Below, in pieces: positions 46,742-53,239 of a DNA stretch of 64,000 bases. The notes under the pieces are model-generated. The model searched no databases and was not told the DNA's origin. It saw only the letters and a list, made by a program, of their open reading frames with translations. Position 1 is the first letter of the stretch. The number at the start of each line of letters is the position of its first letter. A program made the position numbers and the translations under genes. The stretch comes from Pelosinus fermentans DSM 17108 (GTDB lineage Bacteria; Bacillota; Negativicutes; DSM-13327): positions 3,435,501 to 3,499,500 of the forward strand of contig NZ_AKVN02000001.1 in the NCBI RefSeq assembly GCF_000271485.2, given 5' to 3'.

Positions 46742-47572
46742 TTACGATAATCTCATGCTAATGTCAGCTGTCTTTACCGAATGAGTCAGCTCACCGCTTG
46801 AAATAATATCCACTCCAGCAGCAGCCAGCTCTGCTATTCTTTCTAAAACCACATTTCCTGAAACTTCAACCAAAGCTTTCCCATCGACCATCTTTACAGC
46901 CTGCTCGATCATCCGAATGTGCATATTATCCAGCATAATAATGTCTGCACCCACTGACAAAGCTTCTTCTACCTGCTGCAAATCTTCAACTTCTACTTCT
47001 ATTTTTCTAAAAAATGCACCTTGACTGCGCACACGTTGTACTGCAATAGCAATACCTCCTGCAGCCTGAATATGATTATCTTTTATTAGTACCATAGAGT
47101 CCAATCCATAGCGGTGATTTTTCCCACCGCCAACCGTTACAGCATATTTCTCCAACATACGTAAGCCAGGCGTAGTTTTACGTGTATCCACGATAACTGC
47201 AGGAAAATCCTTTACAGCTTCGACATAACGCCTAGTATGAGTTGCGATTCCCGACATTCGCTGCAGCAAATTAAGAGCAACTCGTTCTCCCGCTAATAAG
47301 GAACGAGTATTTCCTGCCAGACTTGCTATTTTCTCTCCTGCTGGAATTGCAGTACCGTCGGCATGACAGGGATTAATCTGGATCTGAGAATCCAGTAAGG
47401 CAAAAACTTGAGCAAATACCTGCATTCCTGCTAAAATGAGATTTTGCTTCGCCAGAAGAAACCCTTGGGATATATGGTCCTCAGGGAAAATCGCTTCACT
47501 GGTAATATCACCAAAGCCAATATCTTCCAATAAAGACCTGCGCAGCAGATCATCTAATGCTAACTTGTTCAT
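46742..47572 (-). CDS. nadC: Nicotinate-nucleotide pyrophosphorylase (quinolinate phosphoribosyltransferase)
   Basis: A 276-residue enzyme converting quinolinate plus PRPP to nicotinate mononucleotide. ATG 47572 is chosen (AAGGGAG 8 bases upstream), rather than an in-frame codon 102 bases further up. Signatures: LLEDIGFGDITSEAIF near residue 12, AGERVALNLLQRMSGIATHT near 88, VDTRKTTPGLRMLEKYAV near 125, GGGKNHRYGLDSMVLIKDNH near 144 and VEVEDLQQVEEALSVGADI near 188. It overlaps the nadB end by 23 bp and closes the NAD operon. Confidence 0.96.
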   Translation of the reverse strand: MNKLALDDLLRRSLLEDIGFGDITSEAIFPEDHISQGFLLAKQNLILAGMQVFAQVFALLDSQIQINPCHADGTAIPAGEKIASLAGNTRSLLAGERVALNLLQRMSGIATHTRRYVEAVKDFPAVIVDTRKTTPGLRMLEKYAVTVGGGKNHRYGLDSMVLIKDNHIQAAGGIAIAVQRVRSQGAFFRKIEVEVEDLQQVEEALSVGADIIMLDNMHIRMIEQAVKMVDGKALVEVSGNVVLERIAELAAAGVDIISSGELTHSVKTADISMRLS

Positions 47573-49163
47573 GTAAAACACTCCCTTTTCCCCATTGCTG
47601 GACCACATGCTTAGAAAAATCTGCATCTTTTTTTTCAGGGTAATCCTCGCGGTAATGCGTCCCTCTGCTCTCACACCGCAGCAACGCTGCTTTTAGTACT
47701 AATTCCGCCAACTGACAAGCATTATACCCATGATACTCCTGAATACTAGTAACATAAGAACTATCTCTATTTTCTTCTTGCTGTAACACCTTCAGCGCTG
47801 AACACATAGACTCACCTTTGCGTACTACTCCTGCTACTTTATCTAAAGTGATTCCTAACTTCTTAGTATCACACCAATGACGCAATATTGTGCCGTCAAT
47901 CATGGCTTTCCTGCGAATTAGGGAATGGATGGCAGGAAATCCTTGATTTATAGCCTGAGCCACTCTCCGTCCAAAGACAACGCCCTCCAGCAGTGAATTG
48001 CTGGCAAGCCGGTTTGCACCATGCAAACCTGTAGCTGCCACTTCCCCACAGGCAAACAAACATGGCAATGTCGTCTGCCCCCAAAGATTCGTAGCGATAC
48101 CGCCAATGGTATAATGAGCTGCTGGTGCTATGGGTATTAAATCTTTTTCCATATAATAACCATTTCCCAGCAATTCCCCATAGACCTGCCGAAAGCGATC
48201 TATTAAAAATTCTTTTCCAAGATGCCGGGCATCTAGGAATACAACCTCTTGCTTAACAGACTGCAACTCGGTAACAATGGCGCGAGAAACTTCATCCCGG
48301 GGAGCCAGTTCACCGTCCCCATGATAAGAAAACATAAATCGTTCCCCTGCTGCATTACGCAGTATGGCCCCTTCCCCTCGAAGCGCTTCTGTTAATAAAA
48401 ATATATCCCCTGATAATGTGGCAAAGGACGTCGGATGAAACTGGACAAATTCCATATCCGCAATGGCAGCTCCGGCTCGATATGCCGCAGCAATTCCATC
48501 ACCATTTGCCGTGATGCTATTGGTAGAACGGGCAAATAAGCCGCTATAACCACCAGTAGCCATTACGACAGCATAGGCACGAAGTGTAACTAATTTTTCA
48601 GAATGTAGAACAATACAACCATAACACTGATCATTCTGCGTTAAAAGATCGACTACAAAACAATGATCAAGCATCTCTATATTTTCCTGCATTTGAATTT
48701 GTTTTGCCATCGTCTCTGCAATATGCCGCCCTGTTGAATCATAGTAATGTACAATTCGGTGGTGAGAATGCCCTGCTTCTTTACCCAAATACAGCCCGTC
48801 TTCCCCCCGGTTAAAATCAGCACCTAAAGACTGCAAGAAATCCAGTGAATTCGGCGCTTCTCTTATTGTGGTCTCCACTGCTGGTTCATGGCACAAACCT
48901 CTGCCTACCCGCAGTGTATCAGCAATGTGCTCTTCTAAGCTGTCATCAGCCCCTAAAGAAATCGCCATCCCTCCTTGGGCTTTATAAGTGCTGCTTTCCT
49001 CAAGATGTTCCTTACTAACAAGGGCTACCTTAAGCTTCGGATCTAAAGACAGGGCAACTGTCATGCCTGCAATTCCTGCACCAATAATGATAACATCATA
49101 ATTTATGTCATCCAACTCAGCAATATTTATCTCAGGTGATACAATATAGCTTCGTTCTGCCAT
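47550..49163 (-). CDS. nadB: L-aspartate oxidase
   Basis: A 537-residue FAD enzyme that oxidises aspartate to iminoaspartate. The FAD motif VIIIGAGIAGMTVALSL lies near residue 25, with AQGGMAISLGADDS near 64, HHRIVHYYDSTGRHIAETM near 133, EFVQFHPTSFA near 243 and HYTIGGIATNLWGQT near 350. It is translated from an ATG overlapping the nadA stop (TAATG). Fumarate can replace oxygen as acceptor in anaerobes. Confidence 0.96.
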   Translation of the reverse strand: MAERSYIVSPEINIAELDDINYDVIIIGAGIAGMTVALSLDPKLKVALVSKEHLEESSTYKAQGGMAISLGADDSLEEHIADTLRVGRGLCHEPAVETTIREAPNSLDFLQSLGADFNRGEDGLYLGKEAGHSHHRIVHYYDSTGRHIAETMAKQIQMQENIEMLDHCFVVDLLTQNDQCYGCIVLHSEKLVTLRAYAVVMATGGYSGLFARSTNSITANGDGIAAAYRAGAAIADMEFVQFHPTSFATLSGDIFLLTEALRGEGAILRNAAGERFMFSYHGDGELAPRDEVSRAIVTELQSVKQEVVFLDARHLGKEFLIDRFRQVYGELLGNGYYMEKDLIPIAPAAHYTIGGIATNLWGQTTLPCLFACGEVAATGLHGANRLASNSLLEGVVFGRRVAQAINQGFPAIHSLIRRKAMIDGTILRHWCDTKKLGITLDKVAGVVRKGESMCSALKVLQQEENRDSSYVTSIQEYHGYNACQLAELVLKAALLRCESRGTHYREDYPEKKDADFSKHVVQQWGKGSVLHEQVSIR

Positions 49164-50068
49164 TACACTACCTCCAGCATTTTTTGCAATGTGATCTGTG
49201 CCCGTAAAGCATATTCCGACTCCACATGAATTTCATATTGCTGATCATTTAATGCTCGATAGATACTTTCCAGTCTAGTCTTTTTCATATTAGGACATAT
49301 CAACCCCGGATGCAGTAAGAAAAAATGCTTGCTAGGCAAAGTCTCTTTGAGGGTACATACAACTCCCATTTCTGTGCCAATCACAAATGTGCTTTCCTCA
49401 GAGAGTTGTGCATAACGAATAATCTCGGATGTACTGCCAACAAAGTCAGCTAAAGCAGCTACTGCCGGATTGCACTCCGGATGAATTAAAATTTTTGCTG
49501 TAGGATATAATTCTCGAACCTGATGTACATCTTTAGGTTGTACTTTAGCATGGGTAACACAGTGACCTTTCCAAAGAATTAACTCCTTGTCCGGCACTTG
49601 TTTGGCAACATAATCGCCCAAATTCTCATCGGGAACGAAAATAACCTTACGATCAGGCAGAGAGGCAACAATTTTAACTGCATTAGCCGAAGTGCAGCAT
49701 ATATCACTCTCGGCCTTTACCTCTGCCGATGAATTAATATAGCAGACGACCGGTACACCAGGATGCTCAGATTTTAAAATACGTAAGCCTTCTGCTGTAA
49801 TCATTTCTGCTAATGGACAGCCAGCATCCTTTTCTGGTAATAATACAGTTTTTGTTGGCGATACGATTTTGGCTGTTTCCGCCATAAAGCGAACACCACA
49901 AAACACAATTACATCCTGTTGGCTGTTAGCTGCCAATTTACTTAAATAAAAAGAATCTCCGACATAGTCTGCAACCTTTTGCACCTCTTCTAATTGATAA
50001 TTATGTGCTAAAATCACCGCATTGCGTTCTTGTTTCAAACGCTGAATCTCCCTTGTTAACTCCAGCAA
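49163..50068 (-). CDS. nadA: Quinolinate synthase A
   Basis: A 301-residue iron-sulfur enzyme condensing iminoaspartate with dihydroxyacetone phosphate. TTG 50068 is preferred (AAGGAG 8 bases upstream); GTG 50077 is nearly touching that site. Signatures: ILAHNYQLEEVQKVADYVGD near residue 19, VFCGVRFMAETAKI near 55, CYINSSAEVKAESDICCTSA near 108, LIHPECNPAVAALADFVGST near 193 and HPGLICPNMKKTRLESIYRA near 252. The three cluster cysteines are in FCGV, CCTSAN and ICPN. It is the first gene of nadABC. Confidence 0.96.
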   Translation of the reverse strand: MLELTREIQRLKQERNAVILAHNYQLEEVQKVADYVGDSFYLSKLAANSQQDVIVFCGVRFMAETAKIVSPTKTVLLPEKDAGCPLAEMITAEGLRILKSEHPGVPVVCYINSSAEVKAESDICCTSANAVKIVASLPDRKVIFVPDENLGDYVAKQVPDKELILWKGHCVTHAKVQPKDVHQVRELYPTAKILIHPECNPAVAALADFVGSTSEIIRYAQLSEESTFVIGTEMGVVCTLKETLPSKHFFLLHPGLICPNMKKTRLESIYRALNDQQYEIHVESEYALRAQITLQKMLEVV

Positions 50069-50215
50069 TATTTTCACTCCTTATTCCCTAATTTATAATC
50101 TTCCTCTGTACTTCTTTCCATTTTAAAAACTAGATTCATTCTTACTATACCTACGATTTACTCAGTGACTAATTTCAAAGTCAGCCATTCGTCCAGATTA
50201 AGTCTTCTTCAACTC

Positions 50216-50293: not shown

Positions 50294-50350
50294 AAAAAGC
50301 CCCATACATCTAGAATCGTTTCTAATCGATTTTAAATGTATGGGGTCTTT
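50294..50350 (-). terminator. Terminator after the AAA-RyR gene
   Basis: CCCCATACAT and ATGTATGGGG form the outer stem, with A/T flanks, 55 bp after the gene's stop codon on the minus strand. Confidence 0.75.
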
Positions 50351-50404
50351 TGATTGATAAGCAATTTGTCTATACAGTGTAATATACTATTTATTCTTAA
50401 CAGA

Positions 50405-52987
50405 TTACATTTCCGTCTCACAATCGCATAAAAATTTAAGTCGTTCCATCTTAAAATTTGCATTTGCCAGAATTTCCGGCCAAATCGTCACCATTTGGTA
50501 AATTTTATATTGGTTCTCCTTAGGCAGACTATTCCACTTGACAAGGGTTGGATCTGTTTTTTTCGTCTTGTCTTTTACATTCCCCTTTTTCCAGCCAGCC
50601 CCTTTACGATAGCGGCACCAGTGAGTATGTTCATATGCAGCAAGCATATCCAATTCTCTTTGTGTAAACTCTACAATAGGTGGAGTTTCCTTAACAGAAA
50701 TAACATCATAGTTAATTGTCAGCAAAGCATTGGGAATATTTCTTGCCTGATTACGAGCAGATTCTTTAAGATCTTCATCAAGATCTTCCCATTTTTTTAG
50801 TAATTCAGAATCTACATTTGTATGATGATGATTGAGTTCTCTATATTTCTCATGAATGGCAATCGCCAGACTTTCAATTTTCTCACTAAAAAAAGTATCA
50901 TGCATCAAGTGGCGCAGGAATTCCTCTTCATCAACATGTAATCTCAGCTGCTCTTGGGACGGCAAGTATGATTGTTCCCATTTTTTTGCATTGGTGAGCA
51001 GACTCATTTCCAGTATGGCTTCCATTGATCTTGATTCATGCTTATACCTTGGAATTTTAAGCATTGCCCGCAATACTCCATTATCAATTTGGGCTTCGCC
51101 TTTATCTTTAATAAGGTGAGGCACCTTTCTCTCTAACAGGGCACGCAGCAGCATCGCCCGGCGAATAATAAACAATTGATCGTTGTGCTGATTGGTCTGA
51201 TTGGGACCCAATATATTGACATAGCCTCTTAAGCGGCTTAAGAAATCCGGCCCCTTTGCCCCTTTGAAATCTAGTAAAAATCGTTTACGTTCCTCTTCAT
51301 CTTCAATATCTTCACCACAAAAGTCTTGGAGAGTACTGCTTGTGCCGCCAGCAAATACAAAGATCGCTTTACCAATCGAATGAAGAGAGTCCCCTTCCCT
51401 AAATACACCATCCTGCATAGGTGCTAAAAAGTATTTTAGCCAGCCCAGTTTTTCTCCAAAAGGAGAATCAAATTCATCAAAAAATACGAGGGGAAGCTTA
51501 CCTTCCAAACACACATCCCTTACCTTGTGAAAGGCATTGATTAACTCTAAGGGAGTGCTTAGCTGGGATAGATTAAAATTCAGTTTCTTAATGAGCCTGG
51601 GTGCAATACTGGAGGCGATTTCTGTTACGCCAAAGGACTTTCCTGACCCGGGAGTTCCAAAGACTGCCATACATAGCGGACGAGGTGCATTATTCGTAGA
51701 AATATACTCCGTCATTAGGTTCTTAATACTTCTGTAACTTTCAATTTCTCCCCTATCCACAGTTTGTAAATTTCCAAACTGGGCAATCGGTATAAATTTA
51801 AGCGCATGTTGTACACCATTTTTGACAATGTTATATGCAATTTCTGCCAAGTTGGTTGAGCTGTTATCTTTGAGTATATACCAGCAAGATTGGCAGCTGA
51901 CATTGTCTGCAAGCCGTATGACTACATCTTGTACATGTTCTTTATATATAAAGTCATCTTCGCCTTCTAAGAAGATGTCAGGATTAGGAAAGGGAGCAAC
52001 TCCCATATTTTTACCGAACCCTTCGATAAAGTATTTCTGCGCAGCAACAATTCCTTCCCGTATTCCTTCACCTATTGACGCCGCCAACTCTTCGTTATTC
52101 TCATGCCCCATCACAATGCTGCGTGCAATTCCAGACACAAAGCATGAAGTAAAACCAGACATTTTTCCTTGACTATCTGTAATAAATTCTCCTTCAAACT
52201 CGTAAGGCAAAAAATACAAACACGATTCAGGCACACTCTCATTTTTATAATAAATGGCACCTTCCAGACCAAAAAGAACAACAAGGTGACGGCATTGCGT
52301 CAAAAAAGCAAGATTCGGACTATTGTTAATCTGCCACACGAAATCCTGTGCAGTCCTTTCCCATGAAAGACTTCTGCTAATGTTAACCCCTTTTGAACGT
52401 AAATCATCACTATTGATAATAACGATCGTTCTATCCATATGATTCTTCTCGAGATTTTTCCAAAGAAGAGTTGTATTGATTGGGTTACTCATTTTATATA
52501 AAATAGTTGGTGACTTATCAGGCATTTTTAAGGCTAGGGGCCAAAACTCTTCATTCGAATGATATCCGTTATTTTCATCATCAATAATAACCATCTCAGC
52601 ATTTGCGTCATCATTGGCAATTGGCAGCAATTTAGGTACGCCAGAAGCCGGTCCTGCAAACCCCAGTAGACGTTTCACTCTGTACACTTTATCATTATTC
52701 TTTTTATTACCAAACACAGGAAACAGTTCTACTTCTGCCATTGCTCTTAGATATTCCTTTGATGCAATCGATTCAAGGTCATGTATGTGAGGAGAGAGTA
52801 CACAAGACCCTGTTGCTAACGTTACTAGCTTCGCTAATAACAGTGCTTCACCGGGCATTAAAACACTATGTATGTTTAAACTGTTTTGCCAATTCAGCCC
52901 TTTACTATTTTGAGGATCTGTAGTCCAATATAGAGAGTTTATGCATATATCTCCAGAAATAACAATTTTTAAATTATTACATTGCAT
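50405..52987 (-). CDS. Large fusion protein: degenerate PfkB-like domain, AAA+ ATPase and tandem RyR-like domains
   Basis: An 860-residue protein I cannot assign to a characterised system. ATG 52987 is chosen (AAGGAG 8 bases upstream). Residues 1-320 resemble a PfkB/ribokinase fold (HLVVLFGLEGAIYY near 234; then SGFTSCFVSGIA near 277). The catalytic GAGD of active kinases is replaced by GFTS, so it is probably a pseudokinase or ligand sensor. Residues 430-620 are AAA+, with Walker A FGTPGSGKSFG (near 443) and Walker B LPLVFFDEFDS. The C terminus has two RyR-like repeats, IHEKYRELNHHHTNVDSELL (near 710) and YEHTHWCRYRKGAGWKKGNV (near 785). It is a single-gene unit with its own terminator. Confidence 0.75.
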   Translation of the reverse strand: MQCNNLKIVISGDICINSLYWTTDPQNSKGLNWQNSLNIHSVLMPGEALLLAKLVTLATGSCVLSPHIHDLESIASKEYLRAMAEVELFPVFGNKKNNDKVYRVKRLLGFAGPASGVPKLLPIANDDANAEMVIIDDENNGYHSNEEFWPLALKMPDKSPTILYKMSNPINTTLLWKNLEKNHMDRTIVIINSDDLRSKGVNISRSLSWERTAQDFVWQINNSPNLAFLTQCRHLVVLFGLEGAIYYKNESVPESCLYFLPYEFEGEFITDSQGKMSGFTSCFVSGIARSIVMGHENNEELAASIGEGIREGIVAAQKYFIEGFGKNMGVAPFPNPDIFLEGEDDFIYKEHVQDVVIRLADNVSCQSCWYILKDNSSTNLAEIAYNIVKNGVQHALKFIPIAQFGNLQTVDRGEIESYRSIKNLMTEYISTNNAPRPLCMAVFGTPGSGKSFGVTEIASSIAPRLIKKLNFNLSQLSTPLELINAFHKVRDVCLEGKLPLVFFDEFDSPFGEKLGWLKYFLAPMQDGVFREGDSLHSIGKAIFVFAGGTSSTLQDFCGEDIEDEEERKRFLLDFKGAKGPDFLSRLRGYVNILGPNQTNQHNDQLFIIRRAMLLRALLERKVPHLIKDKGEAQIDNGVLRAMLKIPRYKHESRSMEAILEMSLLTNAKKWEQSYLPSQEQLRLHVDEEEFLRHLMHDTFFSEKIESLAIAIHEKYRELNHHHTNVDSELLKKWEDLDEDLKESARNQARNIPNALLTINYDVISVKETPPIVEFTQRELDMLAAYEHTHWCRYRKGAGWKKGNVKDKTKKTDPTLVKWNSLPKENQYKIYQMVTIWPEILANANFKMERLKFLCDCETEM

Positions 52988-53117
52988 AGTCATTGCTCCT
53001 TGCAAGGTTATTTTTCTGCCCTTAGCTGGGCACAAATAGTCTATAGAAGGACTTATGTATCCGATAAATACATTATATGTTAATTATTATAGAGTATCCA
53101 CTTATTTCGCATACATG

Positions 53118-53154
53118 AAAGACACTATTTGCATAATCAGCAAATAGTGTCTTT
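53118..53154 (-). terminator. Terminator after HAD gene
   Basis: AAAGACACTATTTGC (53118-53132) pairs perfectly with 53140-53154 around a 7-base loop. It ends the transcript of PTS operon 2 and the HAD gene. Confidence 0.85.
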
Positions 53155-53239
53155 TATCGTATACGATATAATTCATTTAACCTTGCTAAAGGTTTGTTTT
53201 CCCTCTTACTGGTATTGAACAATCTCGAATTCACATCCA

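What the first reader, a model, noticed from the sequence alone, without database searches (positions are those of the whole stretch)
50405..52987. Orphan PfkB-like/AAA+/double RyR protein: candidate new sensing or defence system
One protein combines a kinase fold whose catalytic GAGD is replaced by GFTS, an intact AAA+ motor and two C-terminal RyR-like repeats. RyR domains in bacteria occur in potassium channel and conflict-type proteins and are poorly understood. The pseudokinase could sense a nucleoside or sugar ligand and gate the AAA+ motor. The gene is isolated with its own terminator and no obvious partner, so it may act alone as an effector or remodeller.
Basis: partly seen in the sequence, partly recalled or inferred. 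Interest (0 to 1): 0.8.

Follow-up and report, generated by a model that had tools for sequence, protein, structure and literature searches.

The report
AAA+ ATPase with swappable nucleotide-sensor tail
This bacterial gene encodes an ATP-driven machine whose tail is related to domains that bind the NAD-derived signals of bacterial immunity; relatives carry either of two signal-binding tails, and one sits beside an enzyme family that makes such signals, so it is probably a signal-controlled molecular switch, although the copy here stands alone and its binding pocket has changed.

Summary
The observation largely holds. Window 50405-52987 (-) is one intact 860-aa gene under strong purifying selection (dN/dS 0.05-0.07). 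Its AAA+ motor is complete and its RyR tail is real (Pfam E=1.9e-10). The PfkB claim is unproven: no Pfam or PDB hit, only weak collinear profile matches, and two poor AlphaFold models. 'Double RyR' means one full repeat plus a degenerate one.

The gene belongs to an unnamed, patchily distributed family (about 45 members found) in Bacillota, a Methylobacterium plasmid, a Streptomyces plasmid and a plasmid-like contig. N-domain and AAA+ are constant; the tail is RyR, SLOG-like or absent. Both tail types are known from NAD/ADP-ribose immune signalling.

I mapped the RyDEP cADPR-glycosidase tetrad (H75, W78, H100, D117) without gaps. Members next to a TIR gene and an RyR membrane protein, or next to a SIR2 protein, keep all four. 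The window copy keeps H and W but has D812 and I829. It has no linked partner, and its genome has no TIR above cut-off.

Best reading (0.4): a ligand-gated AAA+ switch of NAD-signal ancestry; here an orphan with a remodelled pocket, more likely binder than hydrolase. A general defence role is not supported: 33 of 36 neighbourhoods showed no TIR, SIR2, RyR or SLOG gene.

The parts
50405..52987 (-). 860-aa protein: N-domain / AAA+ / RyR tail
   Evidence: 97% identical in four other Pelosinus genomes; dN/dS 0.05-0.07
51968..52987 (-). N-terminal domain, residues 1-340; unassigned, possibly a very divergent ribokinase (PfkB) fold; conserved D13, R103, D137, R197, S208, W209, E210, E265
52145..52156 (-).
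   Evidence: alignment of 33 relatives
50903..51907 (-). AAA+ domain and flanks, residues 361-695
51635..51658 (-). Walker A, GTPGSGKS (444-451)
51467..51487 (-). Walker B, VFFDEFD (501-507)
51233..51235 (-). predicted arginine finger R585 (PDFLSRLR)
51029..51031 (-). predicted sensor-2 arginine R653
50702..50905 (-). degenerate first RyR-like repeat (15.5 bits, below cut-off)
50486..50653 (-). RyR repeat (PF02026, 37 bits in the genome scan)
50618..50629 (-). H787..W790, equivalent to RyDEP H75 and W78 (ribose and adenine contacts)
   Evidence: PMC13232231
50552..50554 (-). D812, equivalent to RyDEP H100 (phosphate contact): changed
50501..50503 (-). I829, equivalent to RyDEP catalytic D117: lost
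50294..50351 (-). transcription terminator hairpin with U run, between this gene and nadA
53072..53100 (-). candidate promoter TGGATA-17-TATAAT (consensus match only, no more frequent than in shuffles)

Best explanation
It is a ligand-gated AAA+ ATPase switch. Shown: a constant core (N-domain plus complete AAA+) carries an exchangeable C-terminal module that is RyR or SLOG-like. Both tail types are known elsewhere to bind or process NAD-derived nucleotides (RyR: 2'/3'cADPR in phage RyDEP; SLOG: cADPR isomers in Thoeris ThsA). Inferred: ligand on the tail changes the ATPase or assembly state of the AAA+ part, which acts on a partner held by the N-domain. In relatives linked to TIR and RyR-membrane genes the ligand is probably a TIR-made ADP-ribose nucleotide. 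The window copy is a stand-alone derivative with a remodelled RyR pocket (H787 and W790 kept; H100 to D812; catalytic D117 to I829), so it more likely binds a related adenine nucleotide without hydrolysing it.
For: Tail swap on a constant core: RyR clade and SLOG-like clade are each one side of a branch, 100% support, once four long rows are left out. RyR by Pfam and PDB. SLOG-like tail by BLASTP to a SLOG-like N-terminal domain (E=8e-14), with weak YpsA and DprA Pfam hits. Tetrad aligned to the GenBank RyDEP sequence, whose numbering matches the paper (PMC13232231). Full tetrad in G133 (membrane-RyR, TIR, this gene on one strand), in G460 (RyR ORF overlapping upstream, DUF4062-STAND-TPR protein downstream) and in Methylobacterium (SIR2-TPR protein with a ThsA-like stretch). 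AAA+ motifs intact in nearly all 37 members. Purifying selection.
Against: No binding or ATPase data. Genomes with window-clade copies show no TIR gene above cut-off, so the signal is unknown there. The window lacks two of four RyDEP pocket residues, and one subclade has lost the RyR pocket altogether yet keeps the gene, so the tail cannot be essential to every member. The SLOG assignment is by similarity to one protein whose own SLOG identity I inferred from its motifs; Pfam gave no SLOG hit for it.
Confidence: 0.4

Rival explanations
1. A metabolic or cell-envelope regulator with no link to NAD signals: the N-domain senses a sugar or nucleoside, the AAA+ part remodels an enzyme, and the RyR tail is a structural relic.
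For: Stand-alone housekeeping neighbourhoods; TIR-poor genomes; pocket decay within the RyR clade and its loss in L105, L124, L128, L129, some of which follow a conserved ORF with a glycosyltransferase-like sequence 45-55 bp upstream; N-domain keeps invariant charged residues.
Against: The tail is under purifying selection in Pelosinus; tails are exchanged between two nucleotide-binding folds; distribution is patchy.
Confidence: 0.25
2. An anti-phage defence protein acting alone.
For: Patchy distribution, presence on plasmids, TIR or SIR2 neighbours in a few members.
Against: No PADLOC match for the family beyond a weak JetB hit; in 33 of 36 neighbourhoods no TIR, SIR2, RyR or SLOG gene was found, though PADLOC gave generic hits I could not place.
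Confidence: 0.12
3. A signal sponge or hydrolase that limits NAD-derived immune signals, like phage RyDEP.
For: Intact tetrad in the TIR-linked and SIR2-linked members.
Against: The window lost the H100 and D117 equivalents; absent from 50,697 phage records and found on only one IMG/VR contig, with plasmid-like genes; a sponge would not need a conserved AAA+ motor. RyDEP homologues lacking hydrolysis show the tetrad is not sufficient (PMC13232231).
Confidence: 0.1
4. The N-domain is an active enzyme of a new type, with AAA+ and tail as regulators.
For: D13, R103, D137, R197, S208, W209, E210 and E265 are invariant or nearly so in relatives with only about 20% identity in this domain, as expected of an active site.
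Against: No assigned fold and no GAGD-type base; structure models failed.
Confidence: 0.13

Closest known systems
RyDEP (Mycobacterium phage DyoEdafos gp78, PDB 35TM; PMC13232231)
   Same: RyR domain; H75 and W78 equivalents in the window, all four pocket residues in the TIR-linked and SIR2-linked relatives, with identical spacing (+3, +22, +17)
   Different: RyDEP is a 138-aa stand-alone cADPR glycosidase without AAA+ or N-domain; the window lacks the H100 and D117 equivalents
Thoeris (ThsB TIR signal maker, ThsA SIR2-SLOG or other effector)
   Same: G133 has a TIR gene next to an RyR protein; a SLOG-like tail occurs in nearly half the family; the Methylobacterium copy is near a SIR2 protein with a ThsA-like stretch
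   Different: No ThsA; effector would be an AAA+ protein; the window has no TIR partner
Bacterial TrkA/membrane-RyR proteins and other RyR proteins beside TIR, SLOG or DUF4062 genes (e.g. L036, L038, L040)
   Same: Homologous RyR tail (hits to the window's tail; Pfam)
   Different: Different N-terminal parts; no AAA+ core of this family
Classical AAA ATPases (Mpa/ARC, p97, Torsin, rubisco activase)
   Same: P-loop AAA+ motifs; weak profile matches
   Different: E-values of 6e-4 or weaker over about 120 residues; own N-domain and tail; the window is below cut-off for every named Pfam AAA family
PfkB / ribokinase family
   Same: Weak collinear local matches (IxVxGDxxVD at the start; VxxGxxGAxxx near 237-247)
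   Different: No Pfam, PDB or significant profile match; no GAGD Asp

Membership tests
RyR domain (PF02026) | score above Pfam gathering cut-off | tested here: met
   41.3 bits against 27.4
RyR domain (PF02026) | two full repeats as in animal R12 | tested here: inconclusive
   second repeat 37 bits, first 15.5 bits
RyDEP-type cADPR glycosidase | catalytic dyad H75 and D117 plus W78, H100 | tested here: not met
   window H787, W790, D812, I829; met in L031, L106, L046
AAA+ ATPase | Walker A, Walker B DE, arginine finger, sensor 2 | tested here: met
   Pfam AAA only 17.6 bits for the window but up to 27-28 bits for relatives
PfkB / ribokinase | profile match to PF00294 or a solved structure | tested here: not met
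   hhalign best probability 24%, 2.8% after trimming
PfkB / ribokinase | ribokinase fold | tested here: inconclusive
   AlphaFold pLDDT 37-39 with 7-8 sequences
Thoeris | TIR (ThsB) plus cADPR-responsive effector in one operon | tested here: not met
   no TIR in the window neighbourhood; none above cut-off in genome G000
Known anti-phage system (PADLOC) | match to a PADLOC model | tested here: not met
   only JetB, 15.4 bits over 53 residues
Known anti-phage system (PADLOC) | protects from phage | not testable with these tools
   needs phage challenge

The most novel reading that the evidence does not exclude
A new class of nucleotide-signal-gated AAA+ machine in bacterial NAD/ADP-ribose signalling: a conserved core that swaps RyR and SLOG sensors, is coupled to TIR and RyR-membrane proteins in some bacteria, and occurs elsewhere as a lone gene with a retuned ligand pocket.
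Probability: 0.25. Interest if true: 0.8.

Novelty: new variant of a known kind. Interest (0 to 1): 0.55.

Why it matters
RyR domains were only recently shown, in phages, to bind or cut cADPR immune signals (PMC13232231). A bacterial AAA+ family whose RyR tail ranges from a full RyDEP-type pocket (beside TIR or SIR2 genes) to an altered pocket (lone genes) to none gives a ready series for testing what bacterial RyR domains read and what they control. The SLOG swap gives an independent handle on the same question. The N-domain is an unassigned conserved domain with near-invariant charged residues.

Tried and rejected
PfkB by Pfam, PDB profile and HMM-HMM: at best suggestive. The untrimmed alignment gave 24% probability, the trimmed one 2.8%, so I rely only on the fact that the trimmed best score (25.4) exceeded 100 column shuffles (maximum 22.5) and that three local hits are collinear. 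AlphaFold on the full protein and on the N-domain was too poor to search by fold; only a few sequences were admissible for that tool, so I ran no fold search. Phage origin: no hit in phage records. Link to the adjacent nadABC operon: rejected as a general association, because other genera carry the gene elsewhere and two Pelosinus species that lack it keep nadABC in another context; a terminator separates them. Defence island: a PADLOC screen of 122 neighbours gave mostly generic families, which I could not assign per locus. Rfam: nothing. Papers: no description of this architecture in the held library; the 2015 Burroughs/Aravind survey of nucleotide-centric systems, which I recall as treating RyR and SLOG, was not held.

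Full report
What is there. The ORF at 50405-52987 (minus strand) is intact and encodes 860 aa. It is preceded by a hairpin between it and the upstream HAD gene (53115-53157) and followed by a strong terminator hairpin (50294-50351, z=-5.2), so it is probably transcribed alone. It is 97% identical in four other Pelosinus genomes and absent from three of eight sampled, one of which is only 89% complete. dN/dS against Pelosinus copies is 0.05-0.07 overall and 0.06-0.14 for the RyR tail, so each part is under purifying selection.

Domains. Pfam finds RyR at E=1.9e-10 and AAA only weakly, but the AAA+ motifs Walker A, Walker B, arginine finger and sensor 2 are conserved in nearly all of 37 relatives, and two of the relatives I scanned score above the AAA cut-off by 6-7 bits. 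The first RyR-like repeat is below cut-off. The N-domain has no match in Pfam or the PDB, alone or as a profile of 33 relatives. Against 12 PfkB proteins of the same genome, hhalign gives weak hits that are collinear with ribokinase (start of the fold, and the VxxGxxGA strand pair) and score above 100 column shuffles. This is suggestive, not proof. Both AlphaFold models are unusable.

Family. Searches with the protein and with alignments found about 45 relatives: 18 of 380 genomes in the window's class, 17 of 63 (one of these a tail-only match) and 11 of 83 in two other classes of the phylum, Clostridium pascui, a Methylobacterium plasmid and a Streptomyces plasmid, and one contig of IMG/VR with conjugation-type and ParB-like genes. 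None was found in phage records. The N-domain and AAA+ are constant; the tail is tandem RyR, SLOG-like, or absent. The SLOG-like tail matches a 'GVTGHRP' N-terminal domain of a protein that lies beside TIR and TrkA-RyR genes (BLASTP E=8e-14); it has weak Pfam hits to YpsA and DprA. In a tree of the AAA+ part, SLOG-like members form one group (100/100) and the window's RyR group another (99/99); with the four long rows left out the two tail types separate completely. Clostridium pascui and members of two other classes nest inside the window's group, which points to horizontal transfer.

Ligand pocket. [quoted passage not shown] I took its sequence from GenBank MN234187, checked that residues 75, 78, 100 and 117 are H, W, H, D and aligned it. 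The RyR tails of G133 (L031), G460 (L106) and the Methylobacterium plasmid (L046) keep all four at the same spacing (+3, +22, +17). Four members (L101, L125-L127) keep H, W, H only. The window and its nearest relatives have H, W, D and a hydrophobic residue (one, L133, has lost W). The group L105, L124, L128, L129 has lost the pocket (one search shows three of them; the fourth). The window's tail is therefore predicted not to be a RyDEP-type hydrolase; it may still bind an adenine nucleotide. A Ruegeria phage RyR protein (L156; the paper reports a Ruegeria phage homologue as sponge type) keeps the tetrad, so the tetrad alone does not predict cleavage.

Context. In G133 the gene is the third of three on one strand: a membrane protein with a C-terminal RyR (full tetrad), a TIR protein 41 bp upstream with PADLOC matches to ThsB and SAVED-TIR, then the AAA+ gene. 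In G460 an RyR ORF overlaps the start of the gene at the contig edge, and a DUF4062-STAND-TPR protein lies downstream. On the Methylobacterium plasmid a SIR2-TPR protein with a ThsA-like stretch lies 1.3 kb away on the other strand, past transposase-like genes. A local screen with TIR, RyR, SLOG and SIR2 models found no such gene in the other 33 neighbourhoods of the family (L132, the other TIR hit, is not a family member). So all three full-tetrad members, and none of the others, have such neighbours; this is only about two independent lineages. The genomes with window-type copies that I checked have no TIR gene above cut-off; G000 has one sub-threshold match.

Reading. The simplest account is a nucleotide-gated AAA+ switch, used with TIR and RyR-membrane genes in some bacteria and kept as a lone gene with an altered tail in others. 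Which state is ancestral is not known, since the tree is unrooted. The ligand, the client, the N-domain fold and the biological output are all inferred or unknown. The claim of a general defence system is not supported, and the pseudokinase label should be dropped until the fold is shown.

Limits. Taxonomic reach was restricted to Bacillota plus plasmid, phage and viral collections; the single genome-wide scan used only the window sequence. Neighbour annotation used mechanical ORFs. The held library of papers is partial.

Noticed in passing
window 46742-50077: nadA, nadB, nadC (NAD de novo synthesis) lie directly downstream on the same strand, behind a terminator and a good candidate promoter (50245-50216). 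Two Pelosinus species lacking the gene have nadABC next to an efflux pump instead.
   Followed up: yes
L031:8812-14066: Three genes on one strand in G133: membrane protein with C-terminal RyR, TIR protein, and the N-domain/AAA+/RyR protein; a candidate TIR-RyR signalling operon.
   Followed up: partly
L037:7814-10408: One protein with RelA/SpoT synthetase region, LSDAT-type SLOG and RyR, near a TIR protein; joins alarmone synthesis to ADP-ribose-type sensing.
   Followed up: no
L036:5497-14411 and L038:7486-14517: Clusters of TrkA-RyR channel-like protein, SLOG-like membrane protein, and TIR or DUF4062-like proteins.
   Followed up: no
L040:7477-11102, L041:8019-11647: RyR protein whose N-terminal part shows an HD-like LFHDVGYP motif, next to a TIR-LRR protein.
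   Followed up: no
L128:3607-4794, L129:11429-12778: In the subclade that lost the RyR pocket, a conserved ORF with a glycosyltransferase-like FFDDDEYP motif lies 45-55 bp upstream; no Pfam match.
   Followed up: partly
L115, L117, L119 upstream of the SLOG-type gene: A conserved amino-acid-kinase-family gene (resembles molybdenum storage protein) lies upstream in one genus.
   Followed up: partly
G000:C1:1900076-1900306: Sub-threshold TIR_2 match (22.2 bits, cut-off 28) in the window's own genome.
   Followed up: no
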